DNA from: Pseudomonas costantinii
GTDB taxonomy: Bacteria; Pseudomonadota; Gammaproteobacteria; Pseudomonadales; Pseudomonadaceae
Assembly: GCF_001870435.1 (NCBI RefSeq)
Contig: NZ_MDDR01000066.1
Coordinates: 124,001-188,000, forward strand
Reading direction: 5' to 3'
DNA length: 64,000 nucleotides
Part shown: positions 18,668 to 50,927 of the stretch, in pieces
Position numbering within the stretch: position 1 is the stretch's first letter
Layout: the number at the start of each line of letters is the position of its first letter
The notes under the pieces: generated by a model
What the model was told of the DNA's origin: nothing
Seen by the model: the letters and a program-made list of their open reading frames with translations, nothing else
The model's database searches: none
Program-made: the position numbers and the translations under genes

Positions 18668-20992
18668 GTGGCTCAACATCCGATGGATATCAAGTTCGCC
18701 CACCGCTTGTCTTATAAACAAGCCCGATTGACTGTGCTGGTCGGTTTCGTCTTGGGAACCTTGCTCAGTCTGATCCAAATCGGCATTGATTATGCCAGCG
18801 AAGATGCCTCCATCAACCGTGAAATAAGCTCGCTGATCGAAATTAGCCATAATCCCGCCTCACGTATTGCCTACAACATCGATGCCGAACTCGCTCAGGA
18901 GCTGACCCTGGGCCTGCTGCACTCCCCGGCGATTACGCGCGCACAACTGATCGACAACAACGGCGTGATCTTGGCCGACGTTAATCGCCCACGTAAAGAA
19001 AGTACTTACCGGCCCATCAGCGACTTTCTGTTTGGGGCTAACCGTCAGTTTGAAGATCGGCTGTTTTTGAGCCACATGCCCAATGACGCCCTCGGTGTGC
19101 TGCGCCTGGACGTAGACACTTATGCCTTTGGCAGCCGCTTCCTGCACCGCGCCGAGATCACCCTGCTCAACGGGTTCGCTCGTAGCCTGTTGCTGACCGG
19201 GATCTTGCTGGGCCTGTTCTACGTAATGCTGACCCAACCGCTGGTGCGCATTATTCGCGCACTCAGCACCAGTAAGCAGGCCCATCTGGACTGCCCGCCG
19301 GGGCACGAACACGATGAAATAGGTGTACTGGTGAGCGTCGCCAACAGGCAATTCGAAAACATGGAGGCCGAGATCCAGCAGCGTCGCCACGCCGAGGACC
19401 GCCTCACCGAATACCTGGGCCAACTGGAAGATATCGTCTCCGCGCGCACACTTGAGCTTAAGGCCAGCAACCAACGCTTGAGCCAATCCAACGACGAACT
19501 GGAGGCGGCGAAGATGACTGCATTGGGCATGGCCCAGGCGCGGGCGGCGTTCCTGGCCAATATGAGCCACGAAATTCGCACGCCGCTCAATGGCCTGCTG
19601 GGCATGATTGCACTGTCGCTGGACAGCCCGCTGAATACCGATCAACGTCAGCAACTGTCCATCGCCCATGACTCCGGCAAGGTGCTGGTAGAGTTGCTCA
19701 ACGATATCCTCGACCTGTCCAAGTTCGACGCCGGTCAACTTGAGCTGGAAATGATCCCGTTTGATCTGGGCTCACTGGTAGAAGACACCGCCAACCTGCT
19801 GTCACAAAACGCCGCGCCGAGCGTCGAACTGACCTGCCTGATCGACCCACTGTTTCCCGCCCAGGTGATCGGCGACCCGACGCGTGTGCGGCAAATCGTC
19901 AGCAACCTGCTCTCCAATGCCTTGAAGTTCACCCGCTTCGGCCGAGTCGACGTGCGCCTGAGCGCCAATGAGGGCCGGGTAAAAATTGAAGTGTGCGATA
20001 CCGGTATCGGCATTGCCCAGGAAGCTCAGGTTAAAATCTTTCAGCCTTTCACCCAGGCGGGCGCCGGCATCACCCGCCAATTTGGCGGCACGGGACTGGG
20101 CCTGGCGCTGACACATAACCTATGTGAAGCGATGAAGGGTCGCCTAAGCATCAGTTCGGAAGTGGGCTTTGGCAGCCAGTTCTGCGCCGACCTGCCGCTG
20201 CCTGCGCATTTACCGACAGCCCGACACGCTCCCTTGGTGGGTGACGTGATTGCCATCACCAGTGCCGACAACGGACTGACGGAATTGCTGACCACCCTAC
20301 TGCCGCATTGGGGGCTTACACCACGCTGCTATTCACTCGATGACGATTTAAGCGGGCAAACCCCCGACCTGCTGATCACTGATTGCCCGGAGTGCCTGTT
20401 CCGCCTGCGCCCTACGATCAGTGCCCCAATCTTGCTGGTCACCGCCTATGGCAACTTCATGCCCAGTGAAGAAGTGGCGGCCCTGGGACCGTTGCAACAA
20501 CAGGCACGCCCCTTGAGCCGCAACGCGCTGTATCAGATATTGCAACGCAATTTGCGCAGCGACACGCAACTGATCCTCGACCCCATACAGATGGAAGCCG
20601 TGCCCCTGCTGCACCGGGCGCGCATCCTGCTAGTGGAGGACAACCCGGTCAATCAACTGGTGGCCAAGGGCATGCTCAGCAAACTCGGGTGTGAAGTGAT
20701 CGTGGCCGCCCATGGCGGCGAAGCGCTCAAACGCCTGGAAGAACAGCACGTCGACATGGTGTTGATGGACTGCAATATGCCGGTGATGGACGGCTACGAG
20801 GCCAGCCGGCAGATTCGCCGCAGCGGGCGCTGGCCAGACCTGCCCATCGTTGCCTTGACCGCCAACGCCCTCTCGGAGGAGCGCGAACGGTGCCGCGCGG
20901 CGGGAATGGATGATTACCTGGCCAAGCCGTTTCGCCGGGAAGAACTCAATGCCTTGCTGGACCTCTGGGTACCTAGGACGACAAAACTCTGA
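18668..20992 (+). CDS. Hybrid sensor histidine kinase with degenerate and intact receivers
   Basis: 774 residues from GTG 18668, chosen because AAGGGAAA precedes it; MDIKFAHRLSY at 18683 is the alternative. In order: membrane segment about 25-45; periplasmic domain to about 165; membrane segment LLLTGILLGLFYVML near 175; HAMP and coiled coil to about 285; HisKA with MSHEIRTPLNGLLGM near 297; HATPase with DTGIGIA and GTGLGLAL; a receiver-like segment about 530-645 whose acidic pocket and Lys are not recognisable; an intact receiver with LLVEDNPVNQL near 653 and MDCNMPVMDG near 698. No Hpt is present, so a separate phosphotransfer protein would be needed. The 3' end overlaps the convergent ohrR-like gene by 20 nt. 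Confidence 0.9.
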   Translation: MAQHPMDIKFAHRLSYKQARLTVLVGFVLGTLLSLIQIGIDYASEDASINREISSLIEISHNPASRIAYNIDAELAQELTLGLLHSPAITRAQLIDNNGVILADVNRPRKESTYRPISDFLFGANRQFEDRLFLSHMPNDALGVLRLDVDTYAFGSRFLHRAEITLLNGFARSLLLTGILLGLFYVMLTQPLVRIIRALSTSKQAHLDCPPGHEHDEIGVLVSVANRQFENMEAEIQQRRHAEDRLTEYLGQLEDIVSARTLELKASNQRLSQSNDELEAAKMTALGMAQARAAFLANMSHEIRTPLNGLLGMIALSLDSPLNTDQRQQLSIAHDSGKVLVELLNDILDLSKFDAGQLELEMIPFDLGSLVEDTANLLSQNAAPSVELTCLIDPLFPAQVIGDPTRVRQIVSNLLSNALKFTRFGRVDVRLSANEGRVKIEVCDTGIGIAQEAQVKIFQPFTQAGAGITRQFGGTGLGLALTHNLCEAMKGRLSISSEVGFGSQFCADLPLPAHLPTARHAPLVGDVIAITSADNGLTELLTTLLPHWGLTPRCYSLDDDLSGQTPDLLITDCPECLFRLRPTISAPILLVTAYGNFMPSEEVAALGPLQQQARPLSRNALYQILQRNLRSDTQLILDPIQMEAVPLLHRARILLVEDNPVNQLVAKGMLSKLGCEVIVAAHGGEALKRLEEQHVDMVLMDCNMPVMDGYEASRQIRRSGRWPDLPIVALTANALSEERERCRAAGMDDYLAKPFRREELNALLDLWVPRTTKL

Positions 20993-30508: not shown

Positions 30509-31858
30509 ATGATGAGCCACCCTTGGAGCCCCGACAGCTGGCGCGCCCTGCCGATCCAGCAACAACCCCAGTACCCGGACGCTGCACACTTGCTGCAAGT
30601 GGAGCAGAACCTGGCCAGCTACCCGCCACTGGTGTTTGCCGGGGAAGCCCGCGAGTTGCGCCGTCAATTTGCCGAGGTAACCCAGGGTCGCGCCTTCCTG
30701 TTGCAGGGTGGCGACTGCGCCGAGAGCTTTGCCGAATTCTCCGCCGCAAAAATCCGCGACACCTTCAAGGTGCTGCTGCAGATGGCAATCGTGATGACCT
30801 TCGCCGCCGGCTGCCCGGTCGTCAAAGTCGGGCGCATGGCCGGCCAATTCGCCAAGCCGCGTTCGGCCAACGATGAAACCATCGACGGCATCACGCTGCC
30901 CGCCTACCGTGGCGATATCGTCAACGGCATCGGCTTTGATGAAAAAAGTCGCGTCCCGGACCCGGATCGCCTGTTGCAGTCCTATCACCAGTCCACCGCC
31001 ACCCTCAACCTGCTGCGCGCCTTTGCCCAGGGCGGATTTGCCGACCTGCACCAGGTGCACAAGTGGAACCTGGACTTTATCGCCAACTCCGCACTGGCCG
31101 AAAAGTACAGCCAACTGGCCGACCGCATCGACGAAACCCTGGCCTTCATGCGCGCCTGCGGCATGGACAGTTCGCCGCAGCTGCGCGAAACCAGCTTCTT
31201 TACCGCCCACGAAGCGCTGTTGCTCAACTACGAACAAGCCTTTGTACGCCGCGACAGCCTGACCAACGACTACTACGACTGCTCGGCCCATATGCTATGG
31301 ATCGGCGACCGCACCCGTCAGTTGGATGGGGCCCATGTTGAATTCCTGCGCGGGGTGAACAACCCAATCGGCGTCAAGGTCGGCCCGAGCATGAACCCCG
31401 ACGACCTGATCCGCCTGATCGACATCCTCAACCCGAACAACGACCCCGGCCGTCTGAACCTGATTGCACGCATGGGCGCCGGCAAGGTCGGCGACCACCT
31501 GCCAGGCCTGATCCGCGCGGTGCAGCGCGAGGGCAAACAGGTGCTGTGGAGCTCCGACCCGATGCACGGCAACACCATCAAGGCCAGCAGCGGCTACAAG
31601 ACCCGCGACTTTGCGCAGATCCTCAGCGAAGTGAAGGAATTCTTCCAAGTACACCAAGCGGAAGGCAGCTATGCCGGCGGGATCCACATCGAGATGACCG
31701 GGCAGAACGTCACCGAATGCATCGGCGGCGCACGGCCGATCACCGAAGACGGTTTGTCGGACCGCTATCACACCCATTGCGACCCACGGATGAATGCCGA
31801 TCAGTCGCTGGAACTGGCCTTCCTGATTGCCGAGACGCTGAAGCAAGTCAAACGCTAG
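30509..31858 (+). CDS. Class II (plant-type) DAHP synthase
   Basis: 449 residues. [14 protein letters not shown] near residue 66, [14 protein letters not shown] near 109, [17 protein letters not shown] near 392 and [23 protein letters not shown] near 415 are typical of class II 3-deoxy-7-phosphoheptulonate synthase. It condenses phosphoenolpyruvate and erythrose 4-phosphate, the first shikimate step. No phenazine genes are near, so this is more likely the housekeeping class II copy than phzC. Its last 11 nt overlap the convergent ycaQ remnant. Confidence 0.94.
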
Positions 31859-33028: not shown

Positions 33029-33703
33029 TCACCCCGCCAAAATCACAGCGAGCCATTCAGGGGCACCTGGTCGCTTATCCTTTAAGGGGAAGTCGACCGA
33101 CTCAGGCCAGTCGCGCAAGTCCTGTCGATAGCCCTGCAATTGTTTGTACTGCTCAGCAGTAAGGGTTGTAGGGCGCTCAGCCTCCAGCTCGTCGCGGTGA
33201 CGGGCGATCAGCGGATCAGTGAGCAACAGCGTTTTATCTCGCAATGCACGCTCGCGGTTTTTCAGCTCTTCCACCGTAGGCCCAGGTGCAGGGCCAGTAC
33301 TCGGGCGCCCTTTTTTGCCAGGCACAAGAACCGAACCGCCCAGCGCAAGAACGCGGAATATCTCGTCGTGTTCATCCTGGGGAACGTCTACAAGCTCAGA
33401 CTCTGGCGGAAGCAAACACACAGGGTTGGGCACGGTAATCAGCGGTGCTGAAACACTGTTATCTGGCACATCAATCATGGGCGCCACTGCGTCTGCATCA
33501 GGCACAGAAATGGTTTTAGGCTGTGATTCGTTGCCCTCACTCCAGGCAGGGTTTTGAATCGAAACGTTTGGGCGATTCCACTCTGGATCGGGGACAGAGA
33601 CGGTTGGCCGCACCCATTCGGGGTCTGGCACTTGAATAGTCCGTGTACCGTGGAATACCTCATTGAAGAATGTATTGTCTTTTGCGCTATAGAAAATTTT
33701 CAC
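33029..33703 (-). CDS. Tail fibre assembly-type protein with N-terminal 12-residue repeats
   Basis: 224 residues. Residues 23-101 hold about six units of 12 residues built on VSVPDPEWxRP (TIQVPDPEWVRP, TVSVPDPEWNRP, NVSIQNPAW..., TISVPDADAVAP, MIDVPDNSVSAP, LITVPNPVCLLP). The C-terminal part, from TVEELKNRERALRDKTLLLTDPLI to LRDWPESVDFPLKDKRPGAPEWLAVIL, is typical of phage tail fibre assembly chaperones. It is the last gene before the right end and follows the fibre gene by 3 bp. Confidence 0.8.
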   Translation of the reverse strand: MKIFYSAKDNTFFNEVFHGTRTIQVPDPEWVRPTVSVPDPEWNRPNVSIQNPAWSEGNESQPKTISVPDADAVAPMIDVPDNSVSAPLITVPNPVCLLPPESELVDVPQDEHDEIFRVLALGGSVLVPGKKGRPSTGPAPGPTVEELKNRERALRDKTLLLTDPLIARHRDELEAERPTTLTAEQYKQLQGYRQDLRDWPESVDFPLKDKRPGAPEWLAVILAG

Positions 33704-33706
33704 TTT

Positions 33707-34921
33707 TTAAACCCCCCTGGCCTCTACCATTAAAACAAGGCCCGATTGCACTACGGCGGCCCATTCCTCAATTCTTACCGTACAACCGGCTTTTGTAGGC
33801 GGGTAGAAACATAAAGATAGGGCACTCGAAGATCCAGTTGACTGCCTAACACTTGACCTTACGTTTAAACACTGATTTGGAAATTGAAAAGGCCATGTAA
33901 CGTCTACTAATGTGGTCCCCGGACTGTCACTAAGAGCGTACTCAACCCATTGAATGATTTCCCCAGTATCGGCGTTTTTGCTCCAGCCGCTGCTAGCGAG
34001 CAATGCCGTATCTTTTGGCCTTGACGTTTGCAGCAGTACAAGTTCGCCAGTTGCATCAACACGTAAATATGGCGCGGTTTTGTCACCCCCTACCAAACCC
34101 ACCGCTGATATCCAGTCTTTAGTCGGATACTGACTGGTCCAGCCTTTCACAAATGCCGTGCTGGCGGCGCTACTACTGCTATCCGACATGGTTTGAGTCG
34201 GCACACTTGTCGTTCCGGTAATGACCAACGATGGAACGTTAAGTATGCCTTCGGCAGAGTAAGTCATTGACGGGCCGGTCCAGGTGTTATCGGAACTAAC
34301 CGTTCGCCACGAAAATCCGCCTGTACCGTCAGATCTGTTGCAGATAAAAGCCAGAGCCTTGCTTAAACCACCATCACCAGGCCCATACACAATAAATCCG
34401 CCAGGAGAATTGATAGCCGAATAGTTTCGGTTAATACGAAGGCTAGAAAGACTAGGAGAGTAATCTCCCCCAGCAACAGGCATCTTTCCAGCAATGGAGT
34501 TTGCCACAGTCACTGCAAAGTTTGGATCGTTCCCCAGGGCGTCCGCCAGTTCCTTCAACGTATCAAGGGCTGCTGGCGACGACGCTACCAAAGCCGCGAC
34601 AGCATTCTGAATCACAGTGCCTGTTTCTGCTTTCGTAAAGACATCAGAAAGTTTGTAACCGTCGCGGGAGGTCGGTTTACCCGTAATCTTGTCCCAACTG
34701 CTCGCAAGCTCCTGCAACATCTTCACAGCCTTCAAAACCTGCCCATCATCTTCCGACTTCAGATCCTGCCCGGAACCCTGCACTAGGTTAACCAGCTCAC
34801 GCTGCATAGCATTCAACCAAGCCACAGTTATCATGGTGGCATCAATGCCAGAGCCGGGCTGGCCCTGTGTGAATTCGCCTGCACCGTTCGCAGTCGCGGT
34901 GCTACTGCTGATTTTCTGCAT
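33707..34921 (-). CDS. Phage tail fibre protein
   Basis: 404 residues. The N-terminus has a GSGIDATMITVAWLNAMQRELVNLV stretch common in baseplate-attached fibres of Mu-like phages, then ITGKPTSRDGYKLSDVFTKAETG and a Ser/Thr-rich middle. The C-terminal end is the likely receptor-binding tip. It overlaps the gp48-type gene by 1 nt and is followed by its assembly protein. Base composition is more AT-rich than in the head genes, as expected for exchangeable host-range modules. Confidence 0.82.
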   Translation of the reverse strand: MQKISSSTATANGAGEFTQGQPGSGIDATMITVAWLNAMQRELVNLVQGSGQDLKSEDDGQVLKAVKMLQELASSWDKITGKPTSRDGYKLSDVFTKAETGTVIQNAVAALVASSPAALDTLKELADALGNDPNFAVTVANSIAGKMPVAGGDYSPSLSSLRINRNYSAINSPGGFIVYGPGDGGLSKALAFICNRSDGTGGFSWRTVSSDNTWTGPSMTYSAEGILNVPSLVITGTTSVPTQTMSDSSSSAASTAFVKGWTSQYPTKDWISAVGLVGGDKTAPYLRVDATGELVLLQTSRPKDTALLASSGWSKNADTGEIIQWVEYALSDSPGTTLVDVTWPFQFPNQCLNVRSSVRQSTGSSSALSLCFYPPTKAGCTVRIEEWAAVVQSGLVLMVEARGV

Positions 34922-35496
34922 CAGTTATCTCCGTAGCCGAATAGCAAAATGGACTCGGCCGGTTTCATCTGGCCCAGTCGACATTCAAGTAATTTGTTAC
35001 CCCAGGACGCCACCGGATCACCTGCGGCAGTTAAACCAGCCAGTGCATAGGTGACAGTTACAGCGGGAGCATTAACGCGCCAGGTGAAGTCCCAATCACC
35101 GCCGTAAACGCGGTCGCCTGCACGCGCTATACCTGCACGGGCATGGTGAAAGGTCGCAATGGTGATGTCGTAGCCCAGAGACTTAGCCAAGGCGATGTAA
35201 AAGGGTTTGCTCTGCCCGCCACGTGCTTGCAGTTTGCTAACAACCGCCTGGACGCGTTGCCGGATGGATTGCGGCACGCCTATAAGGCACGGATCGGGTA
35301 ACGCCAAAACTCGCTCCCAGTCAGCCAAACCCATACCAGAGTCGGCAAAGATCGCGCTGTAGACTGCCTCTGCCTGGGTGTCAGACTGGGTCAGCGCGTT
35401 AGCCTCGGCCTCAATAGTGGCGGACAGCATCGGCGCATTGCCGTCATAGGACACAGGAGGTAGCAGCATCCGCAGTTGGTCGGCGAGCTGCGTCAT
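34921..35496 (-). CDS. Mu gp48-like (DUF2313/YmfQ) tail protein
   Basis: 191 residues. LADQLRMLLPPVSYDGNAPMLSATIEAEA, then DWERVLALPDP and IRQRVQAVVSKLQARGGQSKPFYIALAKSLGYDI are the standard DUF2313 pattern. The protein is a baseplate or fibre-connector component in Mu and related contractile tails. It overlaps the gp47-type gene by 4 nt. Confidence 0.9.
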   Translation of the reverse strand: MTQLADQLRMLLPPVSYDGNAPMLSATIEAEANALTQSDTQAEAVYSAIFADSGMGLADWERVLALPDPCLIGVPQSIRQRVQAVVSKLQARGGQSKPFYIALAKSLGYDITIATFHHARAGIARAGDRVYGGDWDFTWRVNAPAVTVTYALAGLTAAGDPVASWGNKLLECRLGQMKPAESILLFGYGDN

Positions 35497-36564: not shown

Positions 36565-36915
36565 TCAAATCACCCTTACAGGTTGGCGAAACACCTGCGG
36601 ATTGCCGGTGGCGTCGATGATGTCGATTTGCAGCGTGAGCCAGCCGTTGTGGGGCTGAGTGACTGATACGGTGATTGTCTTGGCGCGAAGATCCTTTAGC
36701 AGCGGCTTGAGGGCGTCCTCAGCGTATTGCTTGGCAAGGCGACCGACACGGGGGCGGTCTTTCTCGCGGCGAAGTTCGTGCAGGCGGGAGCCCAAAGTGG
36801 GATCTTTCCACCAGGTTCCGAGGGGAGTCATGAGGCGGATGTAAACGGCGTTTGCCAGCGTACTAATACGCTGGCCCGTCAAGTCGCCTGTAGTTGGGTT
36901 TATGCCTGCGTCCAT
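36565..36915 (-). CDS. Mu gp46-like baseplate wedge protein (gp25 lysozyme-like fold)
   Basis: 116 residues. ISTLANAVYIRLMTPLGTWWKDPTLGSRLHELRREKDRP is the usual gp46/W signature, and AEDALKPLLKDLRAKTITVSV follows. It forms part of the baseplate with gp47. In Mu the gp45-type gene lies directly before it; here an unrelated gene is inserted between the two. Confidence 0.9.
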   Translation of the reverse strand: MDAGINPTTGDLTGQRISTLANAVYIRLMTPLGTWWKDPTLGSRLHELRREKDRPRVGRLAKQYAEDALKPLLKDLRAKTITVSVTQPHNGWLTLQIDIIDATGNPQVFRQPVRVI

Positions 36916-36995
36916 AGTGATGCATGGTGCAGGCTCATGAGGCGAGACTGTATTTCAGGGGGGTTTAAGGTTTGACCAATTACCGCATTACCCAA

Positions 36996-37709
36996 TTACA
37001 TTTTTGGGCTAATGATGAGCGTTTGATAAAAATCTTTCTTATCGCAGCAGTGAGCAATATCAGATAGGTCGCCCACTTTTAGGGTTCTTGCGTCATCACC
37101 CGAAGTTCCGTTGTATACGTAAACCCTATATTCCTTCTGGTGGCTAAAACCGTTTGTCTTTCGCATGACAGCCTCATCCCCTTCAAAGGTGCCATTGAAA
37201 GTGTCGGGGTCAAAATACTCCACCAGACCACGGCCCACCTGGTTACCTAACTGAGATTCTGCCGTAAGAGCCTGATCTATACGCTCGACAAGATCTTTTG
37301 CTGGGACAATTACGCAGTATTCACCTAGATCGCCCTTCTCAACGTCCAACATCATGTACGATCTTAGATCCTCAAATGTTTCAAAGCTTAAGTCGTCGTC
37401 GCCGTAAATCGCTGACATGCAGTAGACATGGTAATCATTGTGGCGATTGAGCCCAATTCTGATTGGACCTGCAAAATCCTTTATTACGTGCTCCTCTCCA
37501 GTATCATTATTTTTTAAAGTTAATGTGACACCTTCGGGCTGATGCCACGATGACGTCCCTTCATGCGCATCGCCGATATTGCAGACGCCGTGCTCTTCAT
37601 AAGCCTTGAAGAATTTCAACCGATTCATATAAAAATTGCCACGCAAGAAAGCGTCACGATGGATTTCTTTTTTAAAAAAGCGAACTAAAGCAATGATTTT
37701 TTTCGACAT
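36996..37709 (-). CDS. Unknown cargo protein inserted among baseplate genes
   Basis: 237 residues, acidic and soluble, with no signal or membrane segment. The N-terminus reads KEIHRDAFLRGNFYMNRLKFFKAYEE, then IGDAHEGTSSWHQPEGVTL and later YCVIVPAKDLVERIDQAL. I do not recognise the family. It lies between gp45- and gp46-type genes with 65-80 bp gaps on both sides, unlike the tightly overlapping neighbours, and has visibly lower GC. That is the picture of a moron-type gene; a role in host defence, exclusion or lysogen fitness is inference only. Confidence 0.75.
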   Translation of the reverse strand: MSKKIIALVRFFKKEIHRDAFLRGNFYMNRLKFFKAYEEHGVCNIGDAHEGTSSWHQPEGVTLTLKNNDTGEEHVIKDFAGPIRIGLNRHNDYHVYCMSAIYGDDDLSFETFEDLRSYMMLDVEKGDLGEYCVIVPAKDLVERIDQALTAESQLGNQVGRGLVEYFDPDTFNGTFEGDEAVMRKTNGFSHQKEYRVYVYNGTSGDDARTLKVGDLSDIAHCCDKKDFYQTLIISPKM

Positions 37710-37774
37710 GGGCAGCCTAAGGTTTTGAGGACAACATTCCAGATAATCGACGCAATTAAAGAAATATCAGAAAG

Positions 37775-38335
37775 TTACTGCTTTTGCGATGGCTTTGCGC
37801 CACCGCCATGATCATGCCCATTGTAGACATCCCTGTCGCCTTGCATCGACCGCGCATGGTCTTCAATCTCGCCATCAGCCTTGATACCGCGCTCGACATG
37901 CAGATCGCCGGACATCTCAACCAAAGGCGTCTCAAACCGCACCCTGTTCTTGACCTTAAACAGCAGCTCATCAGTCACGACCTCGATGACCCTGCCGCGC
38001 TTCATATGCACGTAGTCGCCCTCATCGGTATAGAGCGAAACCTCACCGTCCTTTAGCTGGAGACGATAACGGCCATCCTCACTGGCAACCACGACGCAAT
38101 GGTTGCTGCTACCACCCACGGGGATAACCAGATAGTCGGCCCCGGCCAGAGGCGCCGAGCTGAATCCATAATGCTGGAACAGTTCAGCCGAAACGGACTC
38201 ACCCGCCAAGCCTTGCATCTCGACGCCAATCAACGGCCCATGGGAGTTGCTAACCGCAGTAGCGCGGAACGCCTGACGAACCTTGCTCATCACCCGCCAC
38301 ACCTGGTCGCGCACCAGTTGCGCCATCACACTCAT
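37775..38335 (-). CDS. Mu gp45-like baseplate spike protein (gpV type)
   Basis: 186 residues from MSVMAQLVRDQVWRVMSKV, start overlapping the gp44-type stop as TAATG. An OB-fold stretch (GPLIGVEMQGLAGES) is followed by a beta-rich region and the C-terminal YNGHDHGGG, where HDH is the HxH iron-binding motif of contractile-tail spike tips. The trimer should pierce the outer membrane. Confidence 0.9.
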   Translation of the reverse strand: MSVMAQLVRDQVWRVMSKVRQAFRATAVSNSHGPLIGVEMQGLAGESVSAELFQHYGFSSAPLAGADYLVIPVGGSSNHCVVVASEDGRYRLQLKDGEVSLYTDEGDYVHMKRGRVIEVVTDELLFKVKNRVRFETPLVEMSGDLHVERGIKADGEIEDHARSMQGDRDVYNGHDHGGGAKPSQKQ

Positions 38336-47757: not shown

Positions 47758-48726
47758 TTACGCCTTGCCCTTGATGAATTCCGATTCGCTCATGCCCAGC
47801 AGCGAAGCGACCTTTTGCTCTTCGGTGTTGAGCGCGGTTTCGGTGTTATCGGGCTTACGTTTGCCCAGGTCCGTCGGATCGCCCACCGATGGCGCCGCCG
47901 CTACAAAGTCTTTCAGGCGCTGCAAACCCTCAGCGTCCTGGCAGCTAGCGCGGTGGTACTCCAAGGTCGCAGGAACGATCTTCCCGGTCTGGGTGGCTGC
48001 GGTGAGAACGGCGTCCACTTCCTTGTCGTGGTCAGCTTTCTGGAGCTTGACCAGTGCTTGCTCTGCGTTGGTCGCTCGACCGCTCAAGGCGTCGTAGTCC
48101 GCACGCGGAACGAACAGGGCCAAATTCGGCTGTTCGGAGTTGGCCGCTTGGGCGGTCTTGAGTTTGTTGATAGCCGCAATGGCCTCTTCTTCGGTGGCGG
48201 TCTCGGGCAGGCCGAGCAATGCCAAAAGCGCTGGTGAAAGTTTCACTGGCGTAGTCTCCGGGTCTTCTTGGTTGAGTGCTGTCAGGAGGAAATTCGGCTT
48301 ATTGGTCAGGCCCGCGCTGACTAGGCGCGCAATGCGCATGGTCACGGAGTCGTAGTCGAATACGGGGGAGAGAAAGCGGTACTCGCGGTTGATGACCTGG
48401 AGCGAGGCACGAGGCGTCCAGTCGACCTGGCCCCACAAGGCACCGTCGCGGATTTCCAATTGCTTGATCCAGCCACCGGCCGGGGCGTCTTCGCCTTTCG
48501 TTGCGCGGTGCTGAGTGGAGTGCTCCCAGTCAATCGGTAGATCAATGGCCCGATCAGTGAAACTGGAAAGCACCAGGGCCTGGCCCTGTTCATCGAACAG
48601 CCACTGACGGCCGTCGCGACCGGAAACAGTCGGGCCTGCCGGAATCAGCTCGACCCACTCCGGCGCCTTGCCGTCAGAGACGGTTGCGGAGAGGTCGGTA
48701 TTGAGTGCGAGAAGTGTCTTTTTCAT
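47758..48726 (-). CDS. Mu gpI-like head protease/scaffold
   Basis: 322 residues from MKKTLLALNTDLSATVSDG. WVELIPAGPTVSGRDGRQWLFD and DWEHSTQHRATKGEDAPAGGWIKQLEIRDGALWGQVDWT are the protease part; the C-terminal helical part (ANSEQPNLALF to ESEFIKG) is the scaffold. In Mu the I gene also yields the Z scaffold from an internal start. The frame opens at 48825 inside a 20-bp palindrome, so 48726 is preferred, though its binding site is weak. Confidence 0.88.
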   Translation of the reverse strand: MKKTLLALNTDLSATVSDGKAPEWVELIPAGPTVSGRDGRQWLFDEQGQALVLSSFTDRAIDLPIDWEHSTQHRATKGEDAPAGGWIKQLEIRDGALWGQVDWTPRASLQVINREYRFLSPVFDYDSVTMRIARLVSAGLTNKPNFLLTALNQEDPETTPVKLSPALLALLGLPETATEEEAIAAINKLKTAQAANSEQPNLALFVPRADYDALSGRATNAEQALVKLQKADHDKEVDAVLTAATQTGKIVPATLEYHRASCQDAEGLQRLKDFVAAAPSVGDPTDLGKRKPDNTETALNTEEQKVASLLGMSESEFIKGKA

Positions 48727-48822
48727 GCCGCCAGTTTGGGCGGCCAGGATCAAGCGGAGAGTTTCAGGACGGCTTAAGGTTTTAGCCGTTGAAGAAAGGG
48801 TGATCGGTGTATCGGGGGAGCC

Positions 48823-49640: not shown

Positions 49641-50927
49641 TCACTTCTTATCGATCTGTGGCCTGCGGTACAGCCGAACACCGATCCTCAGTTGTTCCAG
49701 GTAGTCAGGATCATTTGACTCCGGGGAGAACGTCGTTACCCCGTCCCATCCATCGTCACCCACTTCAAATACAGACAGCGCCGGTACTGGCTCACCGTCG
49801 ATCTGGTAGCGCGAGATGTACCGGCGCCGGACCACAGCTTTGTTCCTGGAATAGAGCCATTCCAGCCTTACCCATACCTCGTCAGGGTCTTTGATCGCGT
49901 CGGCCAGGAGTAACAGTTCCCGTGCGTGCCCGCGCTTCCTGATCTTTAAAGCACCGGTTTTGGCATTAGTGAACAGCTCCCGGCCGATCACCACGGCATC
50001 TCCCGTCACGTCCTTGAACACGACAGGCGCCGCCTCAGTTGCGCCGAACTCTGCTAGGAAACGGCCTGCATACTCGGAGTCAGTTAAGCCGGTGGGCAAC
50101 AACCGATTCGCAGGCATCTCGCGGGCTGCTGGAAGTGCACCAGGTGCGCGTCGGTTGGGCAGACCCGCACCCTGCACGCTACTGGCCCGCGCCCCTGGAT
50201 CGGGTAACGGATCGTAAGCTCGTAGCGGTGGCACTGCGGCATTGAGGCGCGATTGACCTGGCGCATAGTCAAAGCCCGGATCAATCCCTTTGGGCACACG
50301 AACAACACGCGGGCCATTGGGGCTGTTCACACCGATGGTCCGATCCTCGTACTCCACAACAGGTGATGGGCCGACCGTCAGCCCCATGCGGTCAACGTCG
50401 CGTTGGCTCGCCATGAACTTCTTGCACTTGCAGCCCCAACCATTCTGGGGCGAGTGGGTCGCCCACCAGGGATCATCCAACGGTAATGTTGTTCCATCCC
50501 AAAACAGATGCTCAGCTCTCGGGTGTGCGCTGTCGCCGTGCCGGTAGACTCCATATGGTCGACGCTTGCGTAACTCTGGGTCGGCCATCTGAGTTTCACG
50601 ACCGGCGTTATAGGACTGACGCAGGTTGGTCTCATAGATCACACGGGAACGCCACCCACGGCCACCTTTGTATTGCCAGCCGTGCCTGCCGACGACCTGG
50701 TCAAAGTCTTTTCTGAACTGTTCCAGGGTCAAGCCTTGGCTGATCGCCTTCTCTACAGCGCCCCGCATGTCGCCCAGCAGATCACGCTTTGTGGCCCCAG
50801 CTACCACAAAGGCCCAGTCATGCTCGACGTTGTAGATGTCAGTCCAGGCCCGAGTCGGGATATCTGTCTTGCCCCGGAAATAGTCGATTTGTTCCTGGAA
50901 CGGAAGGGAGCCATGAGAGACTGCCAT
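49641..50927 (-). CDS. Mu gpF-like head morphogenesis protein with C-terminal toxin-type nuclease domain
   Basis: 428 residues. Residues 1-190 are the Mu F domain: YETNLRQSYNAGRETQM, RHGDSAHPRAEHLFWDGTTLPLDDPWWATHSPQNGWGCKC. After a proline-rich linker, residues from about 300 (VFKDVTGDAVVIGRELFTN, RKRGHARELLLLADAIKDPDEVWVR, RRRYISRYQIDGE) resemble the PBECR nucleases (Barnase-EndoU-ColicinE5/D-RelE-like), known as tails of phage head proteins. A role in cutting host RNA after injection has been proposed for such domains. The start overlaps the portal stop as TAATG. Confidence 0.9.
   Translation of the reverse strand: MAVSHGSLPFQEQIDYFRGKTDIPTRAWTDIYNVEHDWAFVVAGATKRDLLGDMRGAVEKAISQGLTLEQFRKDFDQVVGRHGWQYKGGRGWRSRVIYETNLRQSYNAGRETQMADPELRKRRPYGVYRHGDSAHPRAEHLFWDGTTLPLDDPWWATHSPQNGWGCKCKKFMASQRDVDRMGLTVGPSPVVEYEDRTIGVNSPNGPRVVRVPKGIDPGFDYAPGQSRLNAAVPPLRAYDPLPDPGARASSVQGAGLPNRRAPGALPAAREMPANRLLPTGLTDSEYAGRFLAEFGATEAAPVVFKDVTGDAVVIGRELFTNAKTGALKIRKRGHARELLLLADAIKDPDEVWVRLEWLYSRNKAVVRRRYISRYQIDGEPVPALSVFEVGDDGWDGVTTFSPESNDPDYLEQLRIGVRLYRRPQIDKK

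What the first reader, a model, noticed from the sequence alone, without database searches (positions are those of the whole stretch)
36996..37709. Low-GC unknown gene inserted between baseplate genes gp45 and gp46
Seen: 237-residue gene with 65-80 bp gaps on each side in an operon whose other genes overlap, and clearly lower GC. Known: gp45 and gp46 are adjacent in Mu. Inference: a moron. The acidic FLRGNFYMNRLKFFK...IGDAHEG protein is not one I recognise, so it may belong to an undescribed phage-borne defence, anti-defence or exclusion function.
Basis: partly seen in the sequence, partly recalled or inferred. Interest (0 to 1): 0.62.

Follow-up and report, generated by a model that had tools for sequence, protein, structure and literature searches.

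The report
Swappable cargo gene in Mu-like prophage
A Mu-like phage lying in a Pseudomonas genome carries a spare gene at a spot where related phages carry different spare genes or none, and the gene looks like a distant cousin of a suspected anti-phage protein family, so the spot is a good place to look for new phage weapons.

Summary
The gene is real: 237 codons, minus strand, 36996-37709, the lowest-GC stretch of its length in the window (43.7%; gp44 to gp48 57-58%), with 65 and 80 bp gaps, between gp45 and gp46. It is a moron-type insertion. Of 77 related viral contigs with both neighbours, 41 slots are empty, 8 carry this family (X) and 28 other inserts; of 17 Pseudomonas places, 9 are empty, 4 carry X, 3 a small gene, 1 is unreadable. 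Cargo type needs 20 changes on a 44-phage tree.

New here: a conserved element stands 34 bp before gp46, and in relatives also before the gpI protease gene and a holin gene cluster, as Mu late promoters do. So X sits at the seam between two late units rather than inside one operon.

X matches no Pfam, NCBIfam or PADLOC model, but its profile aligns with DUF2971 (hhalign 32.4; decoys at most 16.2) and shares K-x6-[EQ]-x-E-x-R. DUF2971 proteins match PADLOC candidate PDC-S31, and a rough DUF2971 model resembles ADP-ribosyltransferases (ART). Best guess: a divergent ART-like anti-phage effector. Moron nature is close to certain, DUF2971 kinship likely, ART chemistry and defence inferred. No function was tested.

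The parts
36996..37709 (-). X: 237-aa cargo (moron) gene, distant DUF2971-like protein; R/K10, D47, E50, C97, Y165, K184, Q191, E193, R195 invariant or nearly so
37710..37774 (-). leader between the gp45 stop and the X start; holds TTTCTGATATT, a TCTGNTAT sequence shared with an unrelated cargo family of this slot (X 5 of 8, zinc-ribbon-type cargo 6 of 7, empty slots 1 of 23); possible extended -10, not shown
36950..36969 (-). late-promoter-like element CTTAAACCCCCCTGAAATAC, 34 bp before gp46 and directly downstream of X
36565..36915 (-). gp46, baseplate wedge subunit, first gene after the slot
37775..38332 (-). gp45 (Mu gp45 family), last gene before the slot; exact start codon not fixed
48759..48778 (-). 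second copy of the element, CTTAAGCCGTCCTGAAACTC, 32 bp before the gpI gene
47758..48726 (-). gpI, Mu-like prophage I protein (protease); start codon taken as the ATG at 48726

Best explanation
X is a moron: a single-gene cargo at a swap site of Mu-like myophages. The site lies at the seam between two late transcription units: behind gp45, the last gene of the gpI-to-gp45 unit, and in front of the late promoter that starts gp46 onward. Cargo can therefore come and go without cutting an operon. The protein is a divergent relative of the DUF2971 proteins and probably has an ADP-ribosyltransferase-like (ART) fold, with R/K10 and the Q191-x-E193 pair as the likely NAD-handling residues. The most likely role is anti-phage: made by the lysogen, or late in growth, it modifies or drains something an incoming phage needs, by ADP-ribosylation or NAD cleavage. 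Shown: insertion, cargo exchange, purifying selection, the repeated promoter-like element, profile-level kinship with DUF2971. Inferred: promoter activity of the element, ART fold, NAD chemistry, defence, and when X is expressed.
For: Cargo site: 41 empty, 8 X, 28 other inserts of 77 IMG/VR contigs with both flanks (79 found, 2 without gp45); 9 empty, 4 X, 3 small ORF, 1 gp45 not found, of 17 places with near-full gp46 among 398 genomes of the genus. Cargo state needs 20 changes on a tree of gp44+gp46+gp47 from 44 phages; well-supported branches force at least 4 for X. Seam: with at most 3 mismatches the element is within 100 bp upstream of gp46 in 48 of 72 loci examined (of 79), at 32-35 bp, against 0 of 72 stretches inside gp46 (the pattern was drawn from such loci, so this is description, not an independent test); in 11 prophages, window included, it is before gp46 in 10, before gpI in 9, and before a third gene in 6, which in the one tested precedes a holin gene (PF13272; gpI is PF10123 in the window). 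Kinship: X profile (41 rows) against DUF2971 (25 rows) hhalign score 32.4, P 5e-4, against 100 column-shuffled decoys mean 9.6 max 16.2, reversed 13.0, and 11.6-22.8 for four phage families; with the narrower 27-row X alignment 28.1. K-x6-[EQ]-x-E-x-R in 37 of 41 X rows (the 4 misses are fragments without that region), 24 of 25 DUF2971 rows, 18 of 3238 other open frames of 150-400 codons. 22 of 23 DUF2971 proteins match PADLOC PDC-S31; 1 of 9 X-family proteins reaches it, at E 0.012, in the matching region. Fold: X model pLDDT 91.7; of its four rows with 100 or more aligned residues three are DarT, AvrPphF ORF2 and exotoxin A; the DUF2971 model's list is rich in tRNA 2'-phosphotransferase, DarT and cholera-type chains, and its best Foldseek match is DarT1 (E 0.034). 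DUF2971 against DarT: 16.8, above 50 of 50 decoys. Neighbours of relatives.
Against: Pfam's models, DUF2971 included, do not match X (15 members, only DUF7300 at 0.06 for one), nor does PADLOC match P0001. hhalign probability is only 31%, and one unrelated family (gp47) reached 22.8. No structural match has Foldseek E of 0.001 or less; VIA Z is 2.1-2.8 for the ART rows of X, and unrelated folds score as high. The DUF2971 model is poor (pLDDT 62), and non-ART chains (SlgN1, splicing endonuclease, DltA) stand among its best rows. X against DarT and KptA profiles gives nothing (13.0 and 12.4; 16 and 32 of 50 decoys as high), while DarT against KptA gives 20.0, above 50 of 50 decoys. K at the first-strand position in 23 of 39 rows is unusual for an ART (recalled). 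The window shows two copies of the element, not three. If X is read only from the gpI late unit it would be made only in lytic growth, which suits defence by a lysogen badly. In some non-slot loci (L079, L084) I recognised no defence-type neighbour by eye, and no background rate was measured.
Confidence: 0.48

Rival explanations
1. X is an anti-defence protein: an enzyme made during infection that disables a host defence, as the ART AcrIF11 does to CRISPR.
For: X lies in the late region in the direction of the late genes, and no consensus sigma-70 promoter was found around it. X-family genes are on phages and plasmids alike. AcrIF11 is a phage- and plasmid-encoded ART (PMC12421852, title and abstract start seen in listing).
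Against: Late expression is late for counter-defence. DUF2971, the nearest family, is in a library of defence candidates. Relatives beside AbiU2, R-M and BrnT genes point to defence sites.
Confidence: 0.2
2. X is a toxin of a toxin-antitoxin or addiction device that keeps the prophage or plasmid.
For: Relatives lie near TA genes (YhaV/PrlF; BrnT) and on plasmids; RES and DarT show that ART folds serve as TA toxins (PMC9503650, passages).
Against: In the slot X stands alone: no separate partner ORF is seen beside it; the TA genes near relatives belong to other families.
Confidence: 0.1
3. X is an accessory virion or assembly protein of these phages.
For: It sits among baseplate genes.
Against: Absent from 69 of 77 viral slots and 12 of 16 readable Pseudomonas slots; low GC; relatives on plasmids, behind a Zot-like gene and beside R-M genes; slot partners are unrelated.
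Confidence: 0.04
4. The DUF2971 and ART resemblance is convergence of a short K-x6-[EQ]-x-E-x-R motif; X has another fold and an unrelated function.
For: The local hhalign core is 49 columns; structural Z values are low; X shows no profile similarity to DarT or KptA where those two show some to each other.
Against: At a permissive setting the alignment is collinear over 191 columns, with D-x2-E, V-x-Y, K and E/Q-x-E-x-R in the same order; by eye the secondary structures run in parallel.
Confidence: 0.22

Closest known systems
DUF2971 (PF11185) / PADLOC candidate PDC-S31
   Same: K-x6-[EQ]-x-E-x-R, D-x2-E after the second strand, V-x-Y strand, K/R (K/H/R in DUF2971) in the first strand; similar order of strands and helices by eye
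   Different: No match to the Pfam or PADLOC models (one X relative at E 0.012); X lacks the W-x2-Y motif of DUF2971, has an invariant C97, and has Q where DUF2971 has E in E-x-E
ADP-ribosyltransferase superfamily (DarT, KptA/Tpt1, cholera-type A1)
   Same: Possible core fold; [QE]-x-E before a strand; basic residue in the first strand (motifs recalled)
   Different: No sequence-profile similarity of X itself; structural scores low; activity unknown
PHROG 26561 and 13198 (unknown function)
   Same: Sequence families that X matches (2e-32 and 1e-8)
   Different: No function assigned
Accessory genes in regions of genomic plasticity of P. aeruginosa Mu-like phages (PMC4378225, passages)
   Same: Single accessory ORFs between core genes, compared there with morons; some are anti-CRISPR genes
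   Different: Those phages have long flexible tails and other loci; the word baseplate does not occur in that text
Mu late promoters (recalled: Plys, PI, PP, Pmom)
   Same: Element in front of gpI, of a holin gene cluster and of a baseplate gene
   Different: Sequence CTTAARCC-N3-CTGAWAYWC; one copy is before gp46; transcription not measured

Membership tests
Moron | Present in one phage, absent between the same two genes of close relatives | tested here: met
   41 of 77 and 9 of 17 slots empty
Moron | Base composition unlike its neighbours | tested here: met
   43.7% GC, lowest in the window
Moron | Own promoter and terminator; expression from the repressed prophage | tested here: inconclusive
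   No consensus promoter and no terminator in the gap behind X; a TCTGNTAT leader in 5 of 8 X slots; expression not measured
DUF2971 (PF11185) | Matches the Pfam model above its cut-off | tested here: not met
   0 families for P0001 at E up to 1; none of 15 members matches PF11185
DUF2971 (PF11185) | Shared invariant residues and collinear profile alignment (distant kinship) | tested here: met
PADLOC PDC-S31 | Matches the PADLOC models | tested here: not met
   P0001 none; 1 of 9 X-family proteins at E 0.012
ART superfamily | ART core fold | tested here: inconclusive
   X: Z 2.1-2.8 for DarT, AvrPphF ORF2, exotoxin A. DUF2971: Z up to 6.1; 29 of 50 listed rows are ARTs by name or recall, many of them repeats of one protein, with non-ART rows between (low-confidence model)
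ART superfamily | First-strand H/R and [EQ]-x-E motifs | tested here: inconclusive
   Position 10 is K in 23 and R in 16 of 39 rows with a letter there; Q191 37 of 38, E193 37 of 37; place in an NAD cleft not checked, coordinates not at hand
ART superfamily | Profile similarity to accepted ARTs | tested here: inconclusive
   X against DarT and KptA no better than decoys; DUF2971 against DarT above 50 of 50 decoys; DarT against KptA above 50 of 50
ART superfamily | NAD-dependent activity | not testable with these tools
   needs biochemistry
Anti-phage defence gene | Lowers plating of some phage | not testable with these tools
   needs phage challenge

The most novel reading that the evidence does not exclude
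X founds an unrecognised family of phage-borne ART effectors (K/R ... Q-x-E) linked to the unstudied DUF2971 proteins, and the gp45-gp46 seam in front of a late promoter is a defence-cargo exchange site of Mu-like myophages, from which further unknown single-gene defences (zinc-ribbon type, nucleotidyltransferase type, small 90-aa type) can be read off.
Probability: 0.33. Interest if true: 0.7.

Novelty: new variant of a known kind. Interest (0 to 1): 0.52.

Why it matters
If right, it gives a first mechanistic lead (NAD chemistry) for a group of unannotated proteins, and a marked address in Mu-like phages, bounded by two well-known genes and a promoter-like element, where new phage-versus-phage functions can be collected systematically. 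The seam also gives a simple, testable reason why cargo settles there: it is where one late transcript ends and the next begins.

Tried and rejected
Sequence libraries: Pfam, NCBIfam and PADLOC gave nothing for X; PHROGs only unknown families; PDB sequences none for X or DUF2971 profiles; annotated phage records none, with X and with two relatives. Foldseek against PDB and BFVD gave no match at E 0.001 or less; the top families (acetyltransferases, tail tube proteins) superpose badly (TM about 0.1) and were set aside. An IMG/VR scan with one relative (L061) found none.

Structural protein: rejected on distribution and GC. Toxin-antitoxin pair in the slot: rejected, no partner seen. Sigma-70 promoter near X: 0 found, 1.9 expected by shuffling; terminators: 4 found, 2.2 expected, the two on the minus strand lying inside X. 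Profile link of X to DarT or KptA: none. A first run of that test had taken wrong ORFs in several rows (for example L244, L247, L250, L258, L260) and also found nothing; one search replaced it with 8 DarT and 10 KptA rows. Because DarT against KptA then stood out and X did not, I lowered the ART fold from 0.6 to 0.55, the overall confidence from 0.5 to 0.48 and the novel case from 0.35 to 0.33.

Rows dropped: A2 holds the window protein and 26 of 31 loci (left out: L002 identical to the window, L009 and L096 partial, L092 interrupted, L097 long). DUF2971: 25 of 29 loci kept by length for hhalign, 23 for A3. Slot survey: L009 and L150 without gp45; eight distant gp46 places (L067-L074) and one broken one (L042) were fetched or listed but not classed. 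The promoter count used 72 of 79 loci. The tree used the 44 loci with gp46 at 72% identity or more and enough gp44 and gp47. Cargo names 'zinc-ribbon/CoiA type', 'nucleotidyltransferase type', 'VapD-like' and 'HEAT-like' are by eye and recall; the members tested have no library match to support them (the HEAT-like genes were not scanned).

In print: PDC-S31 and DUF2971 together with ADP-ribosyltransferase gave no paper; DUF2971 alone gave one genome re-annotation (listing only). Searches for a cargo site of this kind in Mu-like phages showed none in the titles and abstract starts listed; three of those lists were cut (20 of 34, 15 of 22, 8 of 12 papers). Passages of PMC10689766 held nothing on it. 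The library holds open-licence PMC papers only.

Full report
What is there. The ORF at 37709-36996 (minus strand) is a 237-codon gene with an ATG start, with one match in the genome. It lies between gp45 (PF06890) and gp46 (PF07409) of a Mu-like prophage with Mu-type head and baseplate genes, with gaps of 65 and 80 bp. It is the GC-poorest stretch of its length in the window (43.7%). dN/dS is 0.09-0.14 in four of seven pairs; in three dS could not be computed, and two of the four have dS above 1.5.

The slot. Using gp46 as the bait, not X, I collected 79 IMG/VR contigs. In 77 both neighbours were found: 41 slots are empty, 8 hold X, 28 hold another insert. The other inserts are a 265-278-aa zinc-ribbon-type family (7), a 151-152-aa nucleotidyltransferase-like gene (2), an 83-102-aa family (6), several single kinds, four I could not class, and, in more distant relatives, five AT-rich inserts with genes on the opposite strand: a DUF4145 protein (Pfam 8e-11), an AAA-like protein with a weak AriA match (E 0.0017), a HIRAN protein that matches PADLOC PDC-M03B (2e-10), and two membrane-type proteins by eye. 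Of ten cargo proteins scanned against Pfam, two pass a curated cut-off. In 398 genomes of the genus (Pseudomonas, by the record titles of the same contigs), 17 places have a near-full gp46: 4 slots with X, 3 with the small ORF, 9 empty, 1 without a detectable gp45. On a tree of three core proteins from 44 phages the cargo state needs 20 changes (7 is the least possible; shuffled mean 23.0, as low in 9 of 200), and well-supported branches force at least four changes for X alone. Phages with nearly the same core differ in cargo, for example L141 (X) and L142 (zinc-ribbon type), or L145 and L147 (X) and L146 (nucleotidyltransferase type). This is a cargo-exchange site.

Why here. Upstream of gp46 lies CTTAAACCCCCCTGAAATAC (36969-36950), 34 bp before the start codon. 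With at most 3 mismatches the element is within 100 bp of gp46 in 48 of 72 loci examined, at 32-35 bp, and in 0 of 72 stretches inside gp46. The pattern was drawn from loci of this group, so the count describes rather than tests. The loci without it are the more distant ones plus four with gp46 above 80% identity (L158, L160, L161, L175). In the window the second copy stands 32 bp before the gpI gene (PF10123); by shuffling, 0.17 matches to a stricter form of the pattern are expected in the window and 3 were found, one of them unrelated at 20315. Among 11 prophages, window included, the element is before gp46 in 10, before gpI in 9, and in 6 before a third gene; in the one tested (L219) that gene is a 114-aa ORF followed by a holin gene (PF13272). 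I found no third copy in the window, and the fetched DNA does not reach the third place in all prophages. These are the places of late promoters in Mu (recalled). I therefore read the element as this group's late promoter, and X as cargo placed between the end of one late unit and the start of the next. The leader in front of X carries TCTGNTAT in 5 of 8 X phages and 6 of 7 phages with the unrelated zinc-ribbon-type cargo, but in 1 of 23 empty slots; the small ORFs have CTGTGNTA in 5 of 6; the two nucleotidyltransferase-type slots and three others have neither. Whether these leaders are promoters is open. G139 has two tandem copies of the late element in its empty slot, which may mark the two edges of the exchange; that is inference.

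What X is. X matches only PHROGs of unknown function. It is rare: 10 of 398 genomes of the genus and, with a profile, 8 of 398 across the phylum, both counts including the window's own genome. Relatives at roughly 22-50% identity are on plasmid records of Pseudomonas, Photobacterium, Acinetobacter and Methylobacterium, in prophages (beside terminase and a D12 methylase in L080; near an endolysin in L091; behind a Zot-like gene in L093), 61 bp behind an N-6 methylase and BsuBI/PstI-type restriction pair with an AAA_13 protein on the other side (p58T3), 10 bp behind an AbiU2-type HEPN gene in Duganella (L085 by Pfam; L086 has the same ORF pair), and near BrnT, DUF4268 and DUF3800 genes. In others I recognised no such neighbour. 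I did not measure how often random genes have such neighbours, and I chose by eye which neighbours to scan.

Distant kin. An alignment of 41 X-family sequences compared with 25 DUF2971 proteins scores 32.4 (P 5e-4, probability 31%), against at most 16.2 for 100 shuffled decoys, 13.0 reversed and 11.6-22.8 for four phage protein families. The 27-row X alignment scored 28.1. At a permissive setting the alignment is collinear over 191 columns. The invariant residues of the two sets, found separately, fall on each other: D47, E50, Y165, K184, Q191 (E in DUF2971), E193, R195. K-x6-[EQ]-x-E-x-R occurs in 37 of 41 X rows, 24 of 25 DUF2971 rows and 18 of 3238 other open frames. X is not filed as DUF2971, because the Pfam model does not match it. 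22 of 23 DUF2971 proteins match PADLOC PDC-S31, in a library of known and candidate anti-phage systems; P0001 does not, and one X relative of nine does so weakly (E 0.012).

Fold. The X model is confident (pLDDT 91.7) but has no clear relative: Foldseek nothing at E 0.001 or less, VIA Z at most 3.1. Of the four rows that align 100 or more residues, three are DarT, AvrPphF ORF2 and exotoxin A, ART-fold proteins by recall; the fourth, BesA, is not. The DUF2971 model is weak (pLDDT 62). Its first row is a tRNA 2'-phosphotransferase (Z 6.1), DarT rows follow at 5.5 to 4.5, cholera-type and Scabin chains below; by name or recall 29 of the 50 rows listed are ARTs, many of them repeats of one protein, but SlgN1 (5.6), a splicing endonuclease (5.1) and DltA (5.0) stand among them. 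Foldseek's best is DarT1 (E 0.034, probability 0.60). A Z under 8 can be a common arrangement, so this is support, not proof. By profile, DUF2971 against DarT scores 16.8 (0 of 50 decoys as high; first-strand region), DarT against KptA 20.0 (0 of 50), but X against DarT 13.0 (16 of 50) and against KptA 12.4 (32 of 50). So the ART link rests on DUF2971 as a bridge, not on X itself.

How it works, with likelihoods. Moron at an exchange site: 0.95. Seam between late units: 0.85. Distant DUF2971 kin: 0.8. ART-like fold: 0.55 (lowered from 0.6). Anti-phage role: 0.5; anti-defence role as in AcrIF11 (PMC12421852, listing only): 0.2. The weak point of the defence reading is expression: if X is only read with the late genes, it acts during lytic growth, which would favour exclusion of late competitors or anti-defence.

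Comparison with print. P. aeruginosa Mu-like phages with long flexible tails have accessory genes in regions of genomic plasticity (PMC4378225, passages). KS10, a Burkholderia transposable phage, lists its gp45- and gp46-like genes at 30571-31092 and 31177-31758, so its slot is empty (PMC2628397, passages). A functional screen in E. coli found defence systems in several prophage types, Mu-like among them (PMC9519451, passages). The searches named in Tried and rejected showed me no paper on this slot or on the function of DUF2971.

Noticed in passing
window 49641-50927 (-): The Mu F-like head protein carries a C-terminal PBECR2 nuclease-like domain (Pfam 2.3e-28), a possible toxin-like domain fused to a virion protein.
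   Followed up: no
L142, L148, L167, L169, L171, L172, L186, slot gp45-gp46: A 265-278-aa family with Cys-x2-Cys (zinc-ribbon, CoiA-like by eye) is nearly as common as X in this slot (7 against 8 of 77); the two members scanned (L142, L167) have no Pfam, PADLOC or PHROG match. A candidate new single-gene defence.
   Followed up: partly
L159, L163, L174, L178, L185, L207 and L048, L050, L055: An 83-102-aa family (MSKIxQIxPCxxW type) in the same slot, with a leader motif CTGTGNTA in 5 of the 6 viral loci; one member scanned (L159), no Pfam or PHROG match.
   Followed up: partly
L085 7016-8753 and L086 7016-8753: AbiU2-type HEPN gene followed 10 bp later by an X-family gene in two Duganella species: a possible two-gene system.
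   Followed up: partly
L220 1379-1417 (G139): Two tandem copies of the late-promoter-like element in an empty slot.
   Followed up: no
window 33251-35000: A second lower-GC zone (about 49-51%) over a gene that may be a tail fibre and its neighbour (tail assembly chaperone match PF16778 just below cut-off).
   Followed up: no
L209 and L212, slot: A 254-257-aa membrane-type protein on the opposite strand of an AT-rich slot insert; L209 scanned, no Pfam or PADLOC match.
   Followed up: no
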